Below are positions 11,015-16,759 of a stretch of 41,354 bases of DNA, piece by piece. A model generated the notes under the pieces. The model saw only the letters and a list, made by a program, of their open reading frames with translations, ran no database searches and was not told where the DNA came from. The stretch is from NCBI GenBank assembly GCA_947448495.1, contig CANFNX010000003.1, positions 1 through 41,354 on the forward strand. Reading direction: 5' to 3'. Numbering within the stretch: the first letter of the stretch is position 1; each line of letters begins with the position of its first letter. Made by a program: the position numbers and the translations under genes. Origin of the DNA: Bacteriovoracaceae bacterium (lineage in GTDB: Bacteria > Bdellovibrionota > Bacteriovoracia > Bacteriovoracales > Bacteriovoracaceae).

Positions 11015-11482
11015 TTATCGAATATCAATTACTAAACGACCTGGATTCTCAAGGTAAAAGACATCAAAACTTGATTTTCCTTTCATTGAGAGATTCATCG
11101 TAAGTGATTTTCCATCTACATTTATGAAGTCGATTGATTTTACATTTTTTGAATTTTTCAGATTGGCCTGATTCGTCGACATCATGGCATCAAAAAAATC
11201 AATTGAAATAAACTGATCATTCGCCGAAATATGTCCATAAATTTTTGGAATACTAGGTGTATTAAAATCTATCACCACGCGCTCATACCCTTGACCAGCA
11301 GCCGATGAGTTTCTCACTCCAACGATACCAGCATTTTTCAAATCAGAGTTATGGTGAAACACACCAGAATCAAGAAAAATAGATTTCTTTCGTGGAGAGA
11401 CTTTCCAGATTCTTTCCTCTAAAAGATTTTGTGCAAAAACAGGAAGAGAAAGGCAGAAAGTAATTAAAAGCAATTTCATCAT
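11015..11482 (-). CDS. Exported AMIN-domain-like protein
   Basis: A 156-residue secreted protein. The chosen start at 11482 has a GGAG site about nine bases upstream and begins directly with a Sec signal peptide (MMKLLLITFCL...VFAQ); a longer frame to 11500 adds residues that would spoil the signal. The mature protein has the beta-rich pattern of AMIN domains, ending 'ENPGRLVIDIR', which closely resembles how PilQ and AmiC AMIN domains end. AMIN domains bind peptidoglycan or localise envelope proteins. With only this domain, it may be a periplasmic accessory factor. It sits directly upstream of lon. Confidence 0.75.
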   Translation of the reverse strand: MMKLLLITFCLSLPVFAQNLLEERIWKVSPRKKSIFLDSGVFHHNSDLKNAGIVGVRNSSAAGQGYERVVIDFNTPSIPKIYGHISANDQFISIDFFDAMMSTNQANLKNSKNVKSIDFINVDGKSLTMNLSMKGKSSFDVFYLENPGRLVIDIR

Positions 11483-11521
11483 GCAGTGACTCCAATGCAA
11501 GGTAGAAGAAAGAACTGTTTT

Positions 11522-11550
11522 ATTCTATTAAAAAGGTTTGGCTAAGACAA
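11522..11550 (-). promoter_or_regulatory. Candidate sigma70-type promoter for the AMIN gene and lon
   Basis: On the minus strand, TTGTCT (11545-11550), a 17-base spacer and TAGAAT (11522-11527) stand about 40 bases upstream of the AMIN-gene start. The -35 box overlaps the last codons of the matrixin gene. Recognised by eye only. Confidence 0.4.
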
Positions 11551-13245
11551 AAAATTCTTCGCTCTTTTCGGCCTAAGAGACACGAGGATTGAAAGCATAA
11601 AACCGAGGCTAAAAATACCAAGGAAACTACCCGGACCGTCACCAGGCCCCTGATGAGAAGCGATGGTTCCACAAGCAGCAACTGCAGCGGCTTTTTGATC
11701 TGATGAAATTGTTGCTGCGTTAGCAGTAACAGACTCTCTTTTCTTAACCGCGTAAGCAAAGGGTGCATCCAGGCATGACTGATTATCCGACAAGTGGTGT
11801 CCAGTATCCACGATCTGCCCAGAAGCGTTTTCAATACTGAGCATCAGTAGATAAGGCAAATTAGTGGTTGATCCAAACTTAGAAAAATCCGGAACGCTGT
11901 AAGCAATATCTACATTCATTAGCTTCTTTGCCCTGATTTCAATTTCAAAAATATTATTCGTTAGTGTTGAAGATAACGGGATTGATGTTGAAACATCTAA
12001 ATTCAATGTTCCCTCAGCGATATTGATCGTTTTTCCAAGGCTAGCGCCAGTGACGACTGAATTATTTTGTAAAATCGTTACTGAGTATTCAACTGGGTTC
12101 CCAAAGGGTTGAGATAAAACCGTTACTTTTAGAAATTTTCCTGAAGGAGATCCTAAAGCAGTTAAATCGACATTTAATTTATCAGGATTTGAGAATTCTG
12201 ATGTTGAAAGATAATTATTCGTAAAATATCCGACATAGGCTTTCTCCCATCGAGACTCAAGTTGATAGTCAAAAACGGTCAAAGGATGAAAAGAAGACTG
12301 TAGCTTTTCTAGACTGTAATCTTGTTGAGATCGTAGCGCACAGTTGATGGTTACAACTCCAACATCTAATTCTGGTTGAGAATTTGTCAAATTTAAAGCT
12401 TGTGGTAACCCATCATGCTCTCTTCCACATTCGCTAAAAAAAGATCCCACATAACGTGCAGGGCAAAATTCGTTTTGTACATTTGAATAATAAATAGGAA
12501 GTGCATCAACGTTTTTCAATGGGGAAGTATACAAATAGTAGGTATCATCTAGTGGAAGCCCACCAATTTCAAAAGAACCATCTTCGCTAGTAATACCACC
12601 AACAATTTCACCGCTTCGTCTTGAAATGGCCTGAACATGAACACCTAAAATTCCAATATGATCTCCGCCCATAACATGACCAGATATTTTTCCAAATCCA
12701 GTTCTATACTTGTCACGAATACCAGCGCGATCATCACTGCTCAAATCTGATTGGCCTGGAAAATTCGAAAAAAACATAGTCGAATTCAGGACCTCTGAGT
12801 GCGCTAGTCCGAGAAAATGTCCTAATTCATGAGTGACAACGTCTTTGAGATAAACCTGATTTCCAATTGTCATTCCTGGCGTATCAGTAAAATCATAATT
12901 TTCCTCATTCAAATAAACAGTAGCAGAATTCACAGAGCCTGAATCAGAGTAATTTACCTCTGTGACGCCAATGACTGCTGACCCATACATTGAAAAGTTA
13001 TTTGAAAATTTCAGCTGATTATTGCCCGCATTAGTCCGATAAATATTCAATCCAGAAGCTGAGTTCCATTCAGTAATCGAACTATCAACAACACTTGTAG
13101 AAGACGGGAGAGATGAGGATGTGTTGATGACTTTCAAAGGAATATCTGTCCGACGCCATTTCAATTTATTTTGAGTAGCAGTCAGAGAACTCTGATGAGC
13201 AAAAACATTAAAAGAGATGAATAGAATAGGCCAAAGTTTATGCAT
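11542..13245 (-). CDS. Secreted matrixin-family zinc metalloprotease with C-terminal membrane tag
   Basis: A 567-residue exported protease. A signal peptide (residues 1-16, ending NVFA) is followed by a matrixin-like catalytic domain with the complete zinc site HELGHFLGLAH at 139-149 and the Met of the Met-turn at about 157. Next comes a beta-sandwich module (about 190-245, 'GHVMGGDHIGILGVHVQ', 'SEDGSFEIGGLPL') of the carboxypeptidase-regulatory type, then a long beta-rich region. The C-terminus has a Gly/Pro linker, a hydrophobic helix and a basic end (SLRPKRAKNFLS). This is the layout of GlyGly-/MYXO-CTERM-like sorting tags, though no exact consensus is claimed. It lies 31 bases downstream of the gene at 13277 and is probably coupled to it in function. 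Confidence 0.88.
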   Translation of the reverse strand: MHKLWPILFISFNVFAHQSSLTATQNKLKWRRTDIPLKVINTSSSLPSSTSVVDSSITEWNSASGLNIYRTNAGNNQLKFSNNFSMYGSAVIGVTEVNYSDSGSVNSATVYLNEENYDFTDTPGMTIGNQVYLKDVVTHELGHFLGLAHSEVLNSTMFFSNFPGQSDLSSDDRAGIRDKYRTGFGKISGHVMGGDHIGILGVHVQAISRRSGEIVGGITSEDGSFEIGGLPLDDTYYLYTSPLKNVDALPIYYSNVQNEFCPARYVGSFFSECGREHDGLPQALNLTNSQPELDVGVVTINCALRSQQDYSLEKLQSSFHPLTVFDYQLESRWEKAYVGYFTNNYLSTSEFSNPDKLNVDLTALGSPSGKFLKVTVLSQPFGNPVEYSVTILQNNSVVTGASLGKTINIAEGTLNLDVSTSIPLSSTLTNNIFEIEIRAKKLMNVDIAYSVPDFSKFGSTTNLPYLLMLSIENASGQIVDTGHHLSDNQSCLDAPFAYAVKKRESVTANAATISSDQKAAAVAACGTIASHQGPGDGPGSFLGIFSLGFMLSILVSLRPKRAKNFLS

Positions 13246-13276: not shown

Positions 13277-13996
13277 TTATTTTAATTCTGATTTCTGAGT
13301 CATCATGCGTGAGATTCCCCCAGCAAAACCTAAAATCAAAATCAGCCAAAACACATTGAGTGTGTGAGCCTCATCTTTATTGTCAGACTTTGGGGCCTGC
13401 GAGGCAATGGAGCGATTTTGCCTCTCTGAAGCAGGAGATCTTTTGACGTTTTCTTGGCCTTCAAAAGTCGGGTATTGTTGATTTTGAACCACTTTGAGGT
13501 TTGATCCCTTGATCTCTCTAACGATTCTTTCGAAATCTTTAAAATTCACCTGACCAACCGTTGGATTTTCCGGGAATAAAGTATTTACCATGACAACATC
13601 GCGCCCGTAATTTATGACCTTAAATGTACCAAAGCCTAAATTCATGCCCCAGTATCGATTGTCGACATTTTTAATAAACAGCACGACTTTCTCACCGGCA
13701 ACAAACTTCGGAACACCTTCGACAACGACGTGCCGATCACCTAATTTGCCCCCAGGGTAATGAACAATGACTTCATCCATGCCAAAATACTCAGACTGAA
13801 GCCCCACTTCTTTGGTCATTTTGAATATCATTTGAGTCGCTAGAGATCCATTTTCCAACAGGACAGACTTTTTGCGGAGGTAATGACCTACAAAAACCCC
13901 ATCTGACTCCCTGACCTGCTGCTGAATAGGTTGTGGCCTAAAAGTTGTGGCCCCTAAAGTGAAACTAAAGCAAAGTAAGCAGATTAAGCGAATCAC
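13277..13996 (-). CDS. Exported, C-terminally anchored protein paired with the matrixin protease
   Basis: A 239-residue protein starting with GTG. It has an N-terminal signal peptide (MIRLICLLCFSFTLGAT), a beta-rich domain with 'DEVIVHYPGGKLGD' and 'GVPKFVAGEKVVLFIKN', a polar low-complexity linker (about 165-205), and a final transmembrane helix (FWLILILGFAGGI) with a short tail. From memory, similar 'PGG...GxPxFxxGExVLLF' proteins occur beside secreted matrixins in myxobacteria and relatives; that association is recalled, not checked. It could act as a substrate, propeptide or chaperone for the protease. Its ribosome binding site (GGAGGA, 6-base spacing) is buried in a strong hairpin. Confidence 0.78.
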   Translation of the reverse strand: MIRLICLLCFSFTLGATTFRPQPIQQQVRESDGVFVGHYLRKKSVLLENGSLATQMIFKMTKEVGLQSEYFGMDEVIVHYPGGKLGDRHVVVEGVPKFVAGEKVVLFIKNVDNRYWGMNLGFGTFKVINYGRDVVMVNTLFPENPTVGQVNFKDFERIVREIKGSNLKVVQNQQYPTFEGQENVKRSPASERQNRSIASQAPKSDNKDEAHTLNVFWLILILGFAGGISRMMTQKSELK

Positions 13997-14003
13997 GTCC
14001 GTC

Positions 14004-14042
14004 CTCCGGTATGTCCTACAGAACTAGTCGGACATACCGGAG
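14004..14042 (-). promoter_or_regulatory. Perfect 13-bp inverted repeat that masks a Shine-Dalgarno sequence
   Basis: Arms CTCCGGTATGTCC (14004-14016) and GGACATACCGGAG (14030-14042), as written on the + strand, are exact reverse complements with a 13-base loop. In the minus-strand mRNA the 3' arm ends in GGAG, the core of the GGAGGA ribosome binding site of the gene starting at 13996. No T-tract follows on the minus strand, so a plain terminator is less likely than a translational control hairpin or a protein-binding palindrome. Confidence 0.75.
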
Positions 14043-14057
14043 ACAAACTTGAGTTTT

Positions 14058-16694
14058 TTAATCCAGTTTCAGCAGTTTAATTTCCCCATTTTCAAAACTC
14101 ATCCGAGATGTCGCTAAGTGTTTGAAACAAGGTGATGAATCGATGATTAAAAGGGAGTTTTCAAATTGAATGAGGTCCTGCAAGAACAATCCCAATTGCT
14201 TGAGCTCTTTTTCAGATAGGCCAAAAGAAAGATTTTCAAAAATGATAAGTGAATTCTGAATCGTTTTCATTAACTTGGAGAGCAAATAAATTCTTTGTTT
14301 TTCTCCACCTGAAAGTGAATTGAGGGCCCGATCTAAAGATAGATAATCCAAATTTAAAATTTTCAGATACTCCCAAATACGTCTAAATTTAGGAGTCAGT
14401 TCGATTCTCTCTAATACTTGATTCAGCGGTAAATTATAGGCTTCAGCAACGGTCATCTTACCGTCGGAAATATTCGCATAGAGCGGTTTTATTTTTAAGC
14501 CTTTGCAGTCTTCACACTCCAAAACAATATCTTCTAAATACTGCATTTCAATAACGATGGACCCCTTCCCTTCACAGCGAGAACACATTCCAAGCTCTGA
14601 GTTAGATGAGAAATGTCCCTCTTTAAGATTCATACTTTTTGAGATAGGTAATTTTAAAAAATGCTTCCTAATAACGGAGGCAAACTCAGTAATTGTGCCA
14701 ACAGATGAGCGTGAGGTGAAACGATTGAGTTCAGAAGAAATCACAATAATATCTTCAAACTTCTGGGGAGACTTTATCGACTTTGCTTTAAATTCAACAT
14801 CTTCAAGCCAGTCTCCCGAGATCTTTTTATAGAGAGAATTCGCCATAATTTTTATCAAGGCTGAACTTTTACCTGTTCCAGAATTCCCTGTTACCCAAAC
14901 CATCTCATGAAGAGGGACTTTAAAATCTGAATATGTTTTTCCGTAAATAGATGGTTCAAAGACTTCAATAAATTCTTTCGTCTTGGGTCTTTTTTTAATT
15001 AAATTCCAGGCGGTAGAGTCTTTCTTTTTAAAATATTGAACAGGAGATCCTTCATACATTATTTCTCCGCCTGCTTTTCCTGAAGACGGTCCCATGACAA
15101 CTAAATAATCGCAATTTTTTTGTAGGAATTCAGAGTGGTCAATAAGTATAACAGTGTTTCCCTGTTTGATAATCTCCTCTAGTCCTCGAAGAAGCATCTT
15201 TAATTCATTATCACTTAAGCCTAAGCTGGGTTCATCAAGAACGAATAAACTATCAACACCTTTGAACGAGAGATATTTGATCAGAAGGAGTCTCTGATAC
15301 TCTCCAGCCGAAAGTGACTTTGCCTTTCGCAAGAGTGACAAATGATTCAATCCCATATCACTTGCAAGCTGAAGTTTTTCTGTAATTTCTAAAATAAGGC
15401 GAGCCTCATGAGTTTCTCCCTTAACAGTCTTTTTAGAAAACAATTCAAGAGCATCCTCTACTGTCAGTTGCATAATTTCCGCAAGTCCCATAAATTTTCC
15501 ACCAAGACTAATTTGATAATGGTGAACATCTTTATTGAGACGTGTTGAAGAACAAATCTGGCAGGGTTCTTCTTTTTGTAAATTGCGGATATAGATTCGA
15601 ACAGAAGGTTTATATTTTTTACTCTCTAGATATCCTTTCAATTCTCCATAACCAGGATACTGACCAAGACCGTCTTCAAGAATTTGAAAAAAATCTTTCG
15701 ATTGTTTTTTTATAGGTATATCTGTTGCATATTTTTTCTTCTTACAAATTTTAAGAAATTCTTCGTAGGCAAATTGAAAGGGAGCGTAATTGAGCAATCT
15801 AAGTCCCCCCTCTTCAATACTCAGGTCCTTATCCACAATTTTATTTTCATCATAAATAAGATTAGCACCATACCCATTACAACTTTGACAGGCCCCCAAA
15901 GCACTATATGGGGAAAATGCTGAGACAGTAGAAACGGGACGGGATTCAAAACCACATTTCGGACACACTTTTTCGAAATGAAACTCTAACTTTTGAGGCT
16001 TTTTCAAATCTGGGCCGATGATCATGTAATTTAAAGGCCACTGATTAAGCTTAAGCTCGGTCCACTTTTTTTCTAAGCTATCTAAGTTTTCAAATTTAAA
16101 TCTAAGAACTTCCCAGTATTCATCTTCTGGATTGAAAGTCTCAATCGTTTTTCTTTTAAGTGAATAAGAACGAGGAGGTAAAAATCCCTCACCAAATACG
16201 CGAATAAATTCATGAGGTGATAAAACAACATGATAGGCACCACCAGGAATCACACTCTTTACTTGCTGCTTCATCTGGTCAGACAAAGCGCGTATTTCAA
16301 GCTCACACTTATGATCCGGACACATTTCTTTTGAAGAGCCAAAAAATAAGTTTTGTAATGAGTCCGTTAGTCTCATCAAATCAGAAACAACAGATCTTGA
16401 GCCCACCAATGGATTAATCTGAGGAAGTCCAAAAACAGGGAGCACAGGATAAATAAGATCGACATCTACGGCAGCAGGTCTTTCCGTAAAAAACTTCATG
16501 GAATTTGGGAAAGAGTTCACAAAACGCCGCTTGGATTCATTGTGAAGTGTATGAAAAGCTAAAGATGTTTTTCCGGAGCCAGAAGGGCCAGCAAAACAAA
16601 TCAGCTTTCTAAGGGGGATGTCGAGGTCGATATTTTTTAGATTATGAACCCTGGCACCGCGAATTTGAATAAAGTCTACGTCGCGTTTTTCCAT
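14058..16694 (-). CDS. Divergent UvrA paralogue (twin-ABC ATPase)
   Basis: An 878-residue member of the UvrA family, about 60 residues shorter than canonical UvrA. The N-terminal ABC half is intact: Walker A GPSGSGKT with Lys42, zinc module CPKCGF...CQSC, signature LSAGEYQR, Walker B LDEPSLGL with Asp487/Glu488, and switch His520. The C-terminal half keeps a Walker A-like GNSGTGKSS (Lys609), the zinc finger CSRC...CEDC and signature LSGGEKQR. However, its Walker B reads FENLSFGL (Glu820/Asn821 in place of Asp-Glu) and the switch His is Ser853. It is therefore probably not the housekeeping UvrA but a UvrA2-like or otherwise specialised paralogue, with DNA binding or resistance as possible roles. 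The start has no clear Shine-Dalgarno and lies just behind the rpsI terminator. Confidence 0.85.
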   Translation of the reverse strand: MEKRDVDFIQIRGARVHNLKNIDLDIPLRKLICFAGPSGSGKTSLAFHTLHNESKRRFVNSFPNSMKFFTERPAAVDVDLIYPVLPVFGLPQINPLVGSRSVVSDLMRLTDSLQNLFFGSSKEMCPDHKCELEIRALSDQMKQQVKSVIPGGAYHVVLSPHEFIRVFGEGFLPPRSYSLKRKTIETFNPEDEYWEVLRFKFENLDSLEKKWTELKLNQWPLNYMIIGPDLKKPQKLEFHFEKVCPKCGFESRPVSTVSAFSPYSALGACQSCNGYGANLIYDENKIVDKDLSIEEGGLRLLNYAPFQFAYEEFLKICKKKKYATDIPIKKQSKDFFQILEDGLGQYPGYGELKGYLESKKYKPSVRIYIRNLQKEEPCQICSSTRLNKDVHHYQISLGGKFMGLAEIMQLTVEDALELFSKKTVKGETHEARLILEITEKLQLASDMGLNHLSLLRKAKSLSAGEYQRLLLIKYLSFKGVDSLFVLDEPSLGLSDNELKMLLRGLEEIIKQGNTVILIDHSEFLQKNCDYLVVMGPSSGKAGGEIMYEGSPVQYFKKKDSTAWNLIKKRPKTKEFIEVFEPSIYGKTYSDFKVPLHEMVWVTGNSGTGKSSALIKIMANSLYKKISGDWLEDVEFKAKSIKSPQKFEDIIVISSELNRFTSRSSVGTITEFASVIRKHFLKLPISKSMNLKEGHFSSNSELGMCSRCEGKGSIVIEMQYLEDIVLECEDCKGLKIKPLYANISDGKMTVAEAYNLPLNQVLERIELTPKFRRIWEYLKILNLDYLSLDRALNSLSGGEKQRIYLLSKLMKTIQNSLIIFENLSFGLSEKELKQLGLFLQDLIQFENSLLIIDSSPCFKHLATSRMSFENGEIKLLKLD

Positions 16695-16704
16695 AGGTAT
16701 TTAT

Positions 16705-16732
16705 AAAATAAAAAGGGCTCCTTGCGGAGCCC
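16705..16732 (-). terminator. Rho-independent terminator after rpsI
   Basis: On the minus strand GGGCTCC-GCAA-GGAGCCC (16715-16732) is followed by TTTTTATTTT. It lies 27 bases after the rpsI stop and only 10 bases before the UvrA-paralogue start codon. Confidence 0.9.
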
Positions 16733-16759
16733 CTTCCAACAAATGTTGAAGTCTTAAGA

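What the first reader, a model, noticed from the sequence alone, without database searches (positions are those of the whole stretch)
14004..14042. Hairpin hiding the ribosome binding site of the matrixin module
A perfect 13-bp inverted repeat ends exactly on the GGAG of the Shine-Dalgarno for the GTG-started gene at 13996. In RNA this would block initiation unless opened by temperature, a protein, a small RNA or ribosomes arriving from the upstream gene. No T-tract follows, so it is not a standard terminator. Such a control on a secreted protease module would be notable.
Basis: partly seen in the sequence, partly recalled or inferred. Interest (0 to 1): 0.6.

Follow-up and report, generated by a model that had tools for sequence, protein, structure and literature searches.

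The report
Read-through-silencing hairpin around a flagellar-type promoter
In this relative of predatory bacteria, a protease operon has its own flagellar-type promoter built into an RNA hairpin, so that (by prediction) only transcripts started at that promoter can be translated, while accidental read-through RNA from the gene upstream folds up and is silenced.

Summary
The hairpin is real (13 bp perfect, extendable to about 20 bp; z = -5.45) and occludes the Shine-Dalgarno of the GTG-started gene. The 5' arm fills the -35/-10 spacer, the -10 opens the loop, the predicted start lies at the loop/3'-arm junction, and the 3' arm carries the Shine-Dalgarno. The operon's own transcript should therefore lack the 5' arm and be translatable; only read-through from the UvrA-like gene 61 nt upstream, with no terminator between, would fold and be silenced. 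In 25 same-genus genomes the promoter is kept while the arms change together (22-sequence alignment: 58 double-compensated cells versus 28.3 expected, 0/500 shuffles). 22/25 have spacer-dependent folding z < -2, against 1 of 31 other sigma-28-like promoters of the genus. Modelled RBS opening costs 5.9 kcal/mol in native RNA and 26.6 in read-through RNA for the window (5.6 and 14.3 on average). This is the logic of T4 gene e/I-TevI and B. subtilis sigG: a new member of a known kind, with unusually strong comparative support. Not shown: mapped start, read-through transcription, translation effect.

The parts
14058..16694 (-). upstream UvrA-like gene (878 aa), source of read-through RNA; stop codon 14060-14058
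   Evidence: ORF; UvrA family hits; same strand with its stop 2-39 nt before the -35 in 24 of 25 genus loci
14045..14052 (-). -35 element of sigma-28/FliA-type promoter, TCAAGTTT
   Evidence: conserved in genus loci; pattern hit; Bdellovibrio attack-phase consensus TTAAG-N16-CCGATA (PMC3627812)
14024..14031 (-). -10 element CCGACTAG; its first two C are the last two bases of the 5' arm, the rest opens the loop
   Evidence: invariant CCGA in alignment A1
14030..14042 (-). 5' arm CTCCGGTATGTCC, lying in the -35/-10 spacer
   Evidence: covariation
14017..14029 (-). 13-nt loop GACTAGTTCTGTA
   Evidence: loop length kept in most genus loci
14016..14020 (-). predicted sigma-28 transcription start (best guess 14018); not mapped
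   Evidence: inference from standard sigma-28 -10 to +1 geometry; TSS placed 13 nt after the first C of CCGA
14004..14016 (-). 3' arm GGACATACCGGAG, contains most of the Shine-Dalgarno
14003..14007 (-). Shine-Dalgarno GGAGG, 6 nt before the GTG
   Evidence: sequence
13997..14048 (-). full extended stem-loop in read-through RNA (outer pairs 14048-14043 with 14003-13997)
13277..13996 (-). regulated gene: 239-aa exported protein of unknown family, GTG start
   Evidence: homologues in 107 of 129 family genomes; no Pfam or NCBIfam hit
11542..13245 (-). matrixin-type metalloprotease (Peptidase_M10), presumed co-transcribed
   Evidence: next gene in 23 of the 24 genus loci with enough downstream sequence
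11015..11500 (-). AMIN-domain protein, next gene downstream

Best explanation
A promoter-in-hairpin, read-through-silencing device. SHOWN by sequence: a conserved sigma-28-type promoter between the UvrA-like gene and the protease operon, with an SD-occluding hairpin whose 5' arm lies in the promoter spacer and whose arms covary across species. INFERRED: transcription starting at that promoter begins at the loop/3'-arm junction, so the RNA carries the 3' arm with the Shine-Dalgarno but not the 5' arm, and is translated. RNA polymerase running on from the UvrA-like gene makes an RNA with both arms; these pair, the RBS is buried, and the exported 239-aa protein (and perhaps the matrixin behind it) is not made from that RNA. 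The operon's output is thereby tied to sigma-28 activity, in Bdellovibrio the attack-phase programme.
For: Promoter: TCAAG-N15/16-CCGAY precedes the gene in nearly all genus loci and in variant form across most of the family. The motif class is real in this genus: 66 hits in 8 genomes against 2 for the reversed pattern, 6 against 0 in the own genome, one of them upstream of a flagellin gene. FliA is encoded, 273.5 bits against cut-off 189.6. Published attack-phase consensus TTAAG-N16-CCGATA (PMC3627812). Covariation: 76.0% of cells paired versus 63.2 +/- 1.8 shuffled, 58 double-change cells versus 28.3 +/- 4.2 (0/500), 12 of 14 pairs with compensatory changes, slid registers worse. Own arms pair better than swapped arms: 10.12/14 versus 8.36 +/- 0.27, maximum 9.44 in 20,000 permutations. 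Even the -10 variant C/T covaries with the base before TAGG. Specificity: mean z -4.19 at 25 focal promoters, -0.20 at 31 other sigma-28-like promoters of the genus, Mann-Whitney p about 1e-9. RBS opening cost native / read-through / spacer-shuffled: 5.9 / 26.6 / 10.3 in the window, 5.6 / 14.3 / 7.4 genus mean. The result does not depend on the exact start, +/- 3 nt. No terminator in the 61-nt gap. In L027 the upstream gene has been replaced by another same-strand gene and a differently built hairpin still covers both promoter and SD.
Against: No transcription start, no read-through RNA and no translation effect has been measured. In some species the SD is only partly buried, and the drop in SD accessibility alone is often not beyond spacer-shuffled controls. 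Three of 25 genus loci have weak or no hairpin (L022, L025, L029). The outgroup genus g10 keeps promoter and upstream gene but not the hairpin (L028). Outside the genus the link between hairpin and a close UvrA-like gene is not significant (12/35 versus 2/15 with z < -2, p = 0.16). Other tandem sigma-28-like promoters of the genus lack such hairpins.
Confidence: 0.75

Rival explanations
1. Conditional switch in the operon's main mRNA (RNA thermometer, protein- or sRNA-opened RBS), with an unknown promoter further upstream.
For: The SD is buried and the pairing conserved.
Against: A conserved sigma-28-type promoter sits inside the hairpin and its RNA would lack the 5' arm. The opening cost of about 26 kcal/mol in the window is too high for a thermometer. 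Arms and loop have no conserved recognition sequence apart from promoter bases. No Rfam match.
Confidence: 0.08
2. A 3'-end element of the UvrA-like mRNA: a stem that stabilises or processes its 3' end (for instance an RNase III site), or attenuates read-through transcription.
For: It lies 15 nt after the UvrA-like stop; any RNA stem would show covariation; the UvrA-like gene is upstream in 24 of 25 genus loci.
Against: No T-tract. The stem register is locked to the -10 element and the 3' arm runs into the SD in species after species. In L027 another gene is upstream and a new-geometry hairpin still covers promoter and SD. In L029 the UvrA-like gene remains while both hairpin and matrixin are missing.
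Confidence: 0.12
3. A DNA operator: a dyad-symmetric binding site for a regulator overlapping the promoter.
For: A dyad over a promoter is a classic operator position.
Against: Arm sequences differ almost completely between species of one genus while complementarity is kept; an operator would keep its sequence.
Confidence: 0.03
4. Chance inverted repeat.
For: A 13-bp perfect stem somewhere in 2.9 Mb is not rare by itself (own estimate, about one per genome).
Against: z = -5.45 locally and covarying hairpins at the same place in most of the genus.
Confidence: 0.01

Closest known systems
Bacteriophage T4 gene e (lysozyme), soc, 49 and I-TevI/segB/mobE hairpins (PMC3014915, PMC2988022)
   Same: Long read-through RNAs fold a hairpin that buries the RBS; a later-acting promoter lies in the 5' part of the hairpin, so its transcripts lack the 5' strand and are translated; the product is a potentially damaging enzyme.
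   Different: Phage late promoter instead of cellular sigma-28; the effect is demonstrated there (about 100-fold for gene e) and only predicted here; no sequence relationship.
Bacillus subtilis sigG read-through hairpin (PMC5942855)
   Same: Cellular gene with its own alternative-sigma promoter and a GTG start; a hairpin of 20+ bp proposed to block translation of read-through RNA from the upstream spoIIG operon; it cannot form in RNA from PsigG.
   Different: Sporulation sigma F/G and a regulator gene, versus sigma-28 and an exported protein plus metalloprotease; here the arms covary across more than 20 species.
FliA (sigma-28) attack-phase promoters of Bdellovibrio bacteriovorus (PMC3627812)
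   Same: -35/-10 consensus and spacing TTAAG-N16-CCGATA; that regulon includes proteases.
   Different: No hairpin is described for them in the text searched, and 31 other sigma-28-like promoters of this genus show none as strong.

Membership tests
Read-through-silencing promoter-in-hairpin (T4 gene e / I-TevI / sigG type) | RBS lies in the 3' arm of a stable hairpin formed in the long RNA | tested here: met
Read-through-silencing promoter-in-hairpin (T4 gene e / I-TevI / sigG type) | Gene's own promoter placed so that its RNA lacks the 5' arm | tested here: met
   Met at the level of promoter motif; the start itself is not mapped
Read-through-silencing promoter-in-hairpin (T4 gene e / I-TevI / sigG type) | Co-directional upstream gene without terminator in between | tested here: met
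Read-through-silencing promoter-in-hairpin (T4 gene e / I-TevI / sigG type) | Measured low translation of long RNA, high translation of short RNA | not testable with these tools
   Needs reporters; only modelled energies
Sigma-28/FliA promoter | -35/-10 consensus at the right spacing, and FliA encoded | tested here: met
RNA thermometer | Marginally stable stem that opens near growth temperature | tested here: not met
   Stem -35.9 kcal/mol; RBS opening about 26 kcal/mol in the read-through RNA
Intrinsic terminator | T-tract directly after the stem | tested here: not met
Riboswitch or other Rfam RNA family | Covariance-model match above gathering score | tested here: not met
DNA operator dyad | Sequence conservation of half-sites between relatives | tested here: not met
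   Arms diverge with compensatory changes

The most novel reading that the evidence does not exclude
The whole predator family is under recurrent selection to keep read-through RNA from expressing this exported-protein/matrixin operon outside the sigma-28 phase. It does so by different devices that arose several times: spacer-armed hairpins in genus g1 and again in g13, g16 and g18; near-leaderless starts in g43 and g14, where read-through RNA would have no Shine-Dalgarno; and weak GTG/TTG start codons throughout g1. The -35/-10 spacer would then be a general place to encode the antisense arm of such devices.
Probability: 0.3. Interest if true: 0.65.

Novelty: new member of a known kind. Interest (0 to 1): 0.5.

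Why it matters
If true, an operon for an exported protein and a metalloprotease in predator-related bacteria is locked at the translation level to one sigma factor, with transcriptional leakage from the neighbour made harmless. It gives a clean comparative case, with arms covarying inside a promoter spacer in more than 20 species, that read-through-silencing hairpins are selected features of cellular genomes and not phage curiosities. It also suggests a simple search: alternative-sigma promoters whose spacer is complementary to the RBS downstream.

Tried and rejected
Dispersed repeat: rejected, unique in the assembly. Intrinsic terminator: no T-tract. Rfam element: none. General feature of sigma-28 promoters: rejected, 31 others average z -0.20. 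Operator dyad: rejected by arm divergence. SD-only accessibility as a statistic was weak and mixed; the opening cost of the whole RBS is clearer. The first structure string given to the pair counter was one character too long, and a version with inner pairs was out of register, so its counts are ignored. L022, L027 and L029 were left out of alignment A1 because their register differs, which favours the structure somewhat; the swap test and z-scores include them. The outside-genus test for dependence on a close upstream UvrA-like gene was not significant. The genome-contig scan found one relative only. A solved-structure search for the 239-aa protein found nothing convincing. Most flagellin genes of the own genome have only a weak match to the promoter motif; one has a good match.

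Full report
Observation. The inverted repeat is as described: minus-strand arms 14042-14030 and 14016-14004, 13 of 13 complementary, 13-nt loop, with the 3' arm ending on the GGAG of GGAGG, 6 nt before GTG 13996. The folded region has MFE -35.9 kcal/mol, z -5.45, with 0 of 200 shuffles as good, and further outer pairs take in the rest of the SD. It is unique in the 2.85-Mb, 202-contig assembly, matches no Rfam family and is followed by no T-tract.

Setting. Upstream and co-directional is a UvrA-like gene (14058-16694), with its stop 61 nt before the GTG. The 239-aa exported protein gene (13277-13996) is followed by a matrixin-type protease (11542-13245) and an AMIN-domain protein. The 239-aa protein has homologues in 107 of 129 genomes of the taxonomic family. 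The closest named record is a Bacteriovoracaceae MAG, so the host belongs to the predatory Bdellovibrionota or is close to them.

Lining up the upstream regions of same-genus homologues shows an invariant block, TCAAGTTY-N13/14-CCGA(C/T)AAG-N4-(G/A)TAGG. In the notation of Karunker et al. 2013 (PMC3627812) this is TCAAG-N16-CCGAY (N15 in a few), against their attack-phase consensus TTAAG-N16-CCGATA, which they assign to FliA/sigma-28. The motif class is real here: 66 hits in 8 genus genomes against 2 for the reversed pattern, and 6 against 0 in the own genome, one of which lies upstream of a flagellin gene. The own genome encodes FliA. Variant forms (GTAAAG, CTAAAG, CTTAAG) precede the gene in most other genera of the family.

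Anatomy. The -35 is 14052-14045. The 5' arm occupies the spacer and ends on the CC of the -10. The rest of the -10 is the start of the loop. With normal sigma-28 geometry the start is near 14018, at the end of the loop. The 3' arm with the SD is the first part of the mRNA. The operon's own RNA therefore cannot form the hairpin, and this holds if the start is moved by 3 nt either way. Only RNA coming from upstream has both arms. No terminator-like site lies between. The 5' arm begins 15 nt beyond the UvrA-like stop, so a terminating ribosome is not expected to reach into the stem (inference).

Selection on the pairing. In a gapless alignment of 22 genus sequences, the 14 pairs in the expected register are formed in 76.0% of cells, against 63.2 +/- 1.8 in shuffles; 58 cells have both sides changed, against 28.3 +/- 4.2; 12 of 14 pairs show compensatory change; slid registers fall off, with +1 intermediate because some species have a one-base bulge. 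Relatedness is not modelled in that control. In all 25 loci, a species' own arms pair better (10.12 of 14) than swapped arms (8.36 +/- 0.27, maximum 9.44 in 20,000 permutations). RNAalifold independently finds the apical helix, and a covarying pair between the -10 variant base (C or T) and the base preceding TAGG (G or A).

Specificity and size of the effect. Shuffling only the spacer gives a per-locus test of whether the spacer was chosen to pair. The focal promoters average z -4.19 (22 of 25 below -2). 31 other sigma-28-like promoters from nine genomes of the genus average -0.20, with one below -2. The modelled cost of opening the RBS is 5.9 kcal/mol in the sigma-28 RNA, 26.6 in read-through RNA and 10.3 with shuffled spacers for the window; genus means are 5.6, 14.3 and 7.4.

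Natural experiments. In L027 (G091) the UvrA-like gene has been displaced by another same-strand gene ending 12 nt before the -35, and a hairpin of different geometry still covers both promoter and SD. In L029 (G103), the one genus member clearly without the hairpin, the matrixin is also missing downstream. Both fit a device serving the downstream operon rather than the 3' end of the UvrA-like mRNA. They are single cases.

Beyond the genus. Similar spacer-armed hairpins occur in g13, g16 and g18 and in single members of other genera (12 of 35 loci with the UvrA-like gene upstream have z < -2, against 2 of 15 without; difference not significant, p = 0.16). In g43 and g14 the predicted start is 1-6 nt from ATG. 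Genus g1 uses GTG or TTG in all 25 loci, other genera mostly ATG (start codons are predictions).

Comparison with the known. T4 gene e: long early RNAs form an RBS-burying helix, late promoters lie in its 5' strand, and the effect is about 100-fold (PMC3014915). I-TevI and other homing endonuclease genes are built alike (PMC2988022). B. subtilis sigG has a 20+ bp hairpin proposed to block read-through RNA from spoIIG that cannot form from PsigG, and a GTG start (PMC5942855). The present case works like these by anatomy; function is untested. It is a new member of a known kind. I found no report of it in this lineage in the papers searched, which is not proof of absence.

Status of each step. 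Shown: the hairpin, its covariation, the interleaved promoter motif and its conservation, locus specificity, the co-directional upstream gene. Inferred: sigma-28 use, start position, existence of read-through RNA, translational silencing, and benefit (keeping an exported protein and protease tied to one phase).

Noticed in passing
L030, L031, L032 (genus g43); L066, L078, L080 (genus g14): Same sigma-28-type promoter, but the predicted start is only 1-6 nt before the ATG, so these homologues may be translated from near-leaderless mRNA; read-through RNA would then lack a Shine-Dalgarno, possibly another way to the same end.
   Followed up: partly
genus g1 loci L003-L029: All 25 same-genus homologues have a predicted GTG (19) or TTG (6) start, none ATG, whereas other genera of the family mostly have ATG (57 of 64).
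   Followed up: no
window 14058-16694 (-): UvrA-like protein of 878 aa scoring well below the UvrA equivalog cut-offs: a divergent paralogue kept next to this operon across most of the family.
   Followed up: no
L029 (G103): The one same-genus locus clearly lacking the hairpin also lacks the matrixin gene downstream.
   Followed up: partly
L027 (G091): A lipoprotein-like gene of about 380 codons lies between the UvrA-like gene and the operon; the hairpin was rebuilt with the -10 element inside the 5' arm.
   Followed up: partly
L057 (G001, genus g2): GCATTACC/GGTAATGC perfect dyad around a CCGATATG -10-like element in a distant genus; a start codon lies inside or after the hairpin, not resolved.
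   Followed up: no
window 16709-16738 (-): Strong intrinsic terminator between the rpsI-like gene and the UvrA-like gene, so the UvrA-like gene probably has its own promoter.
   Followed up: no
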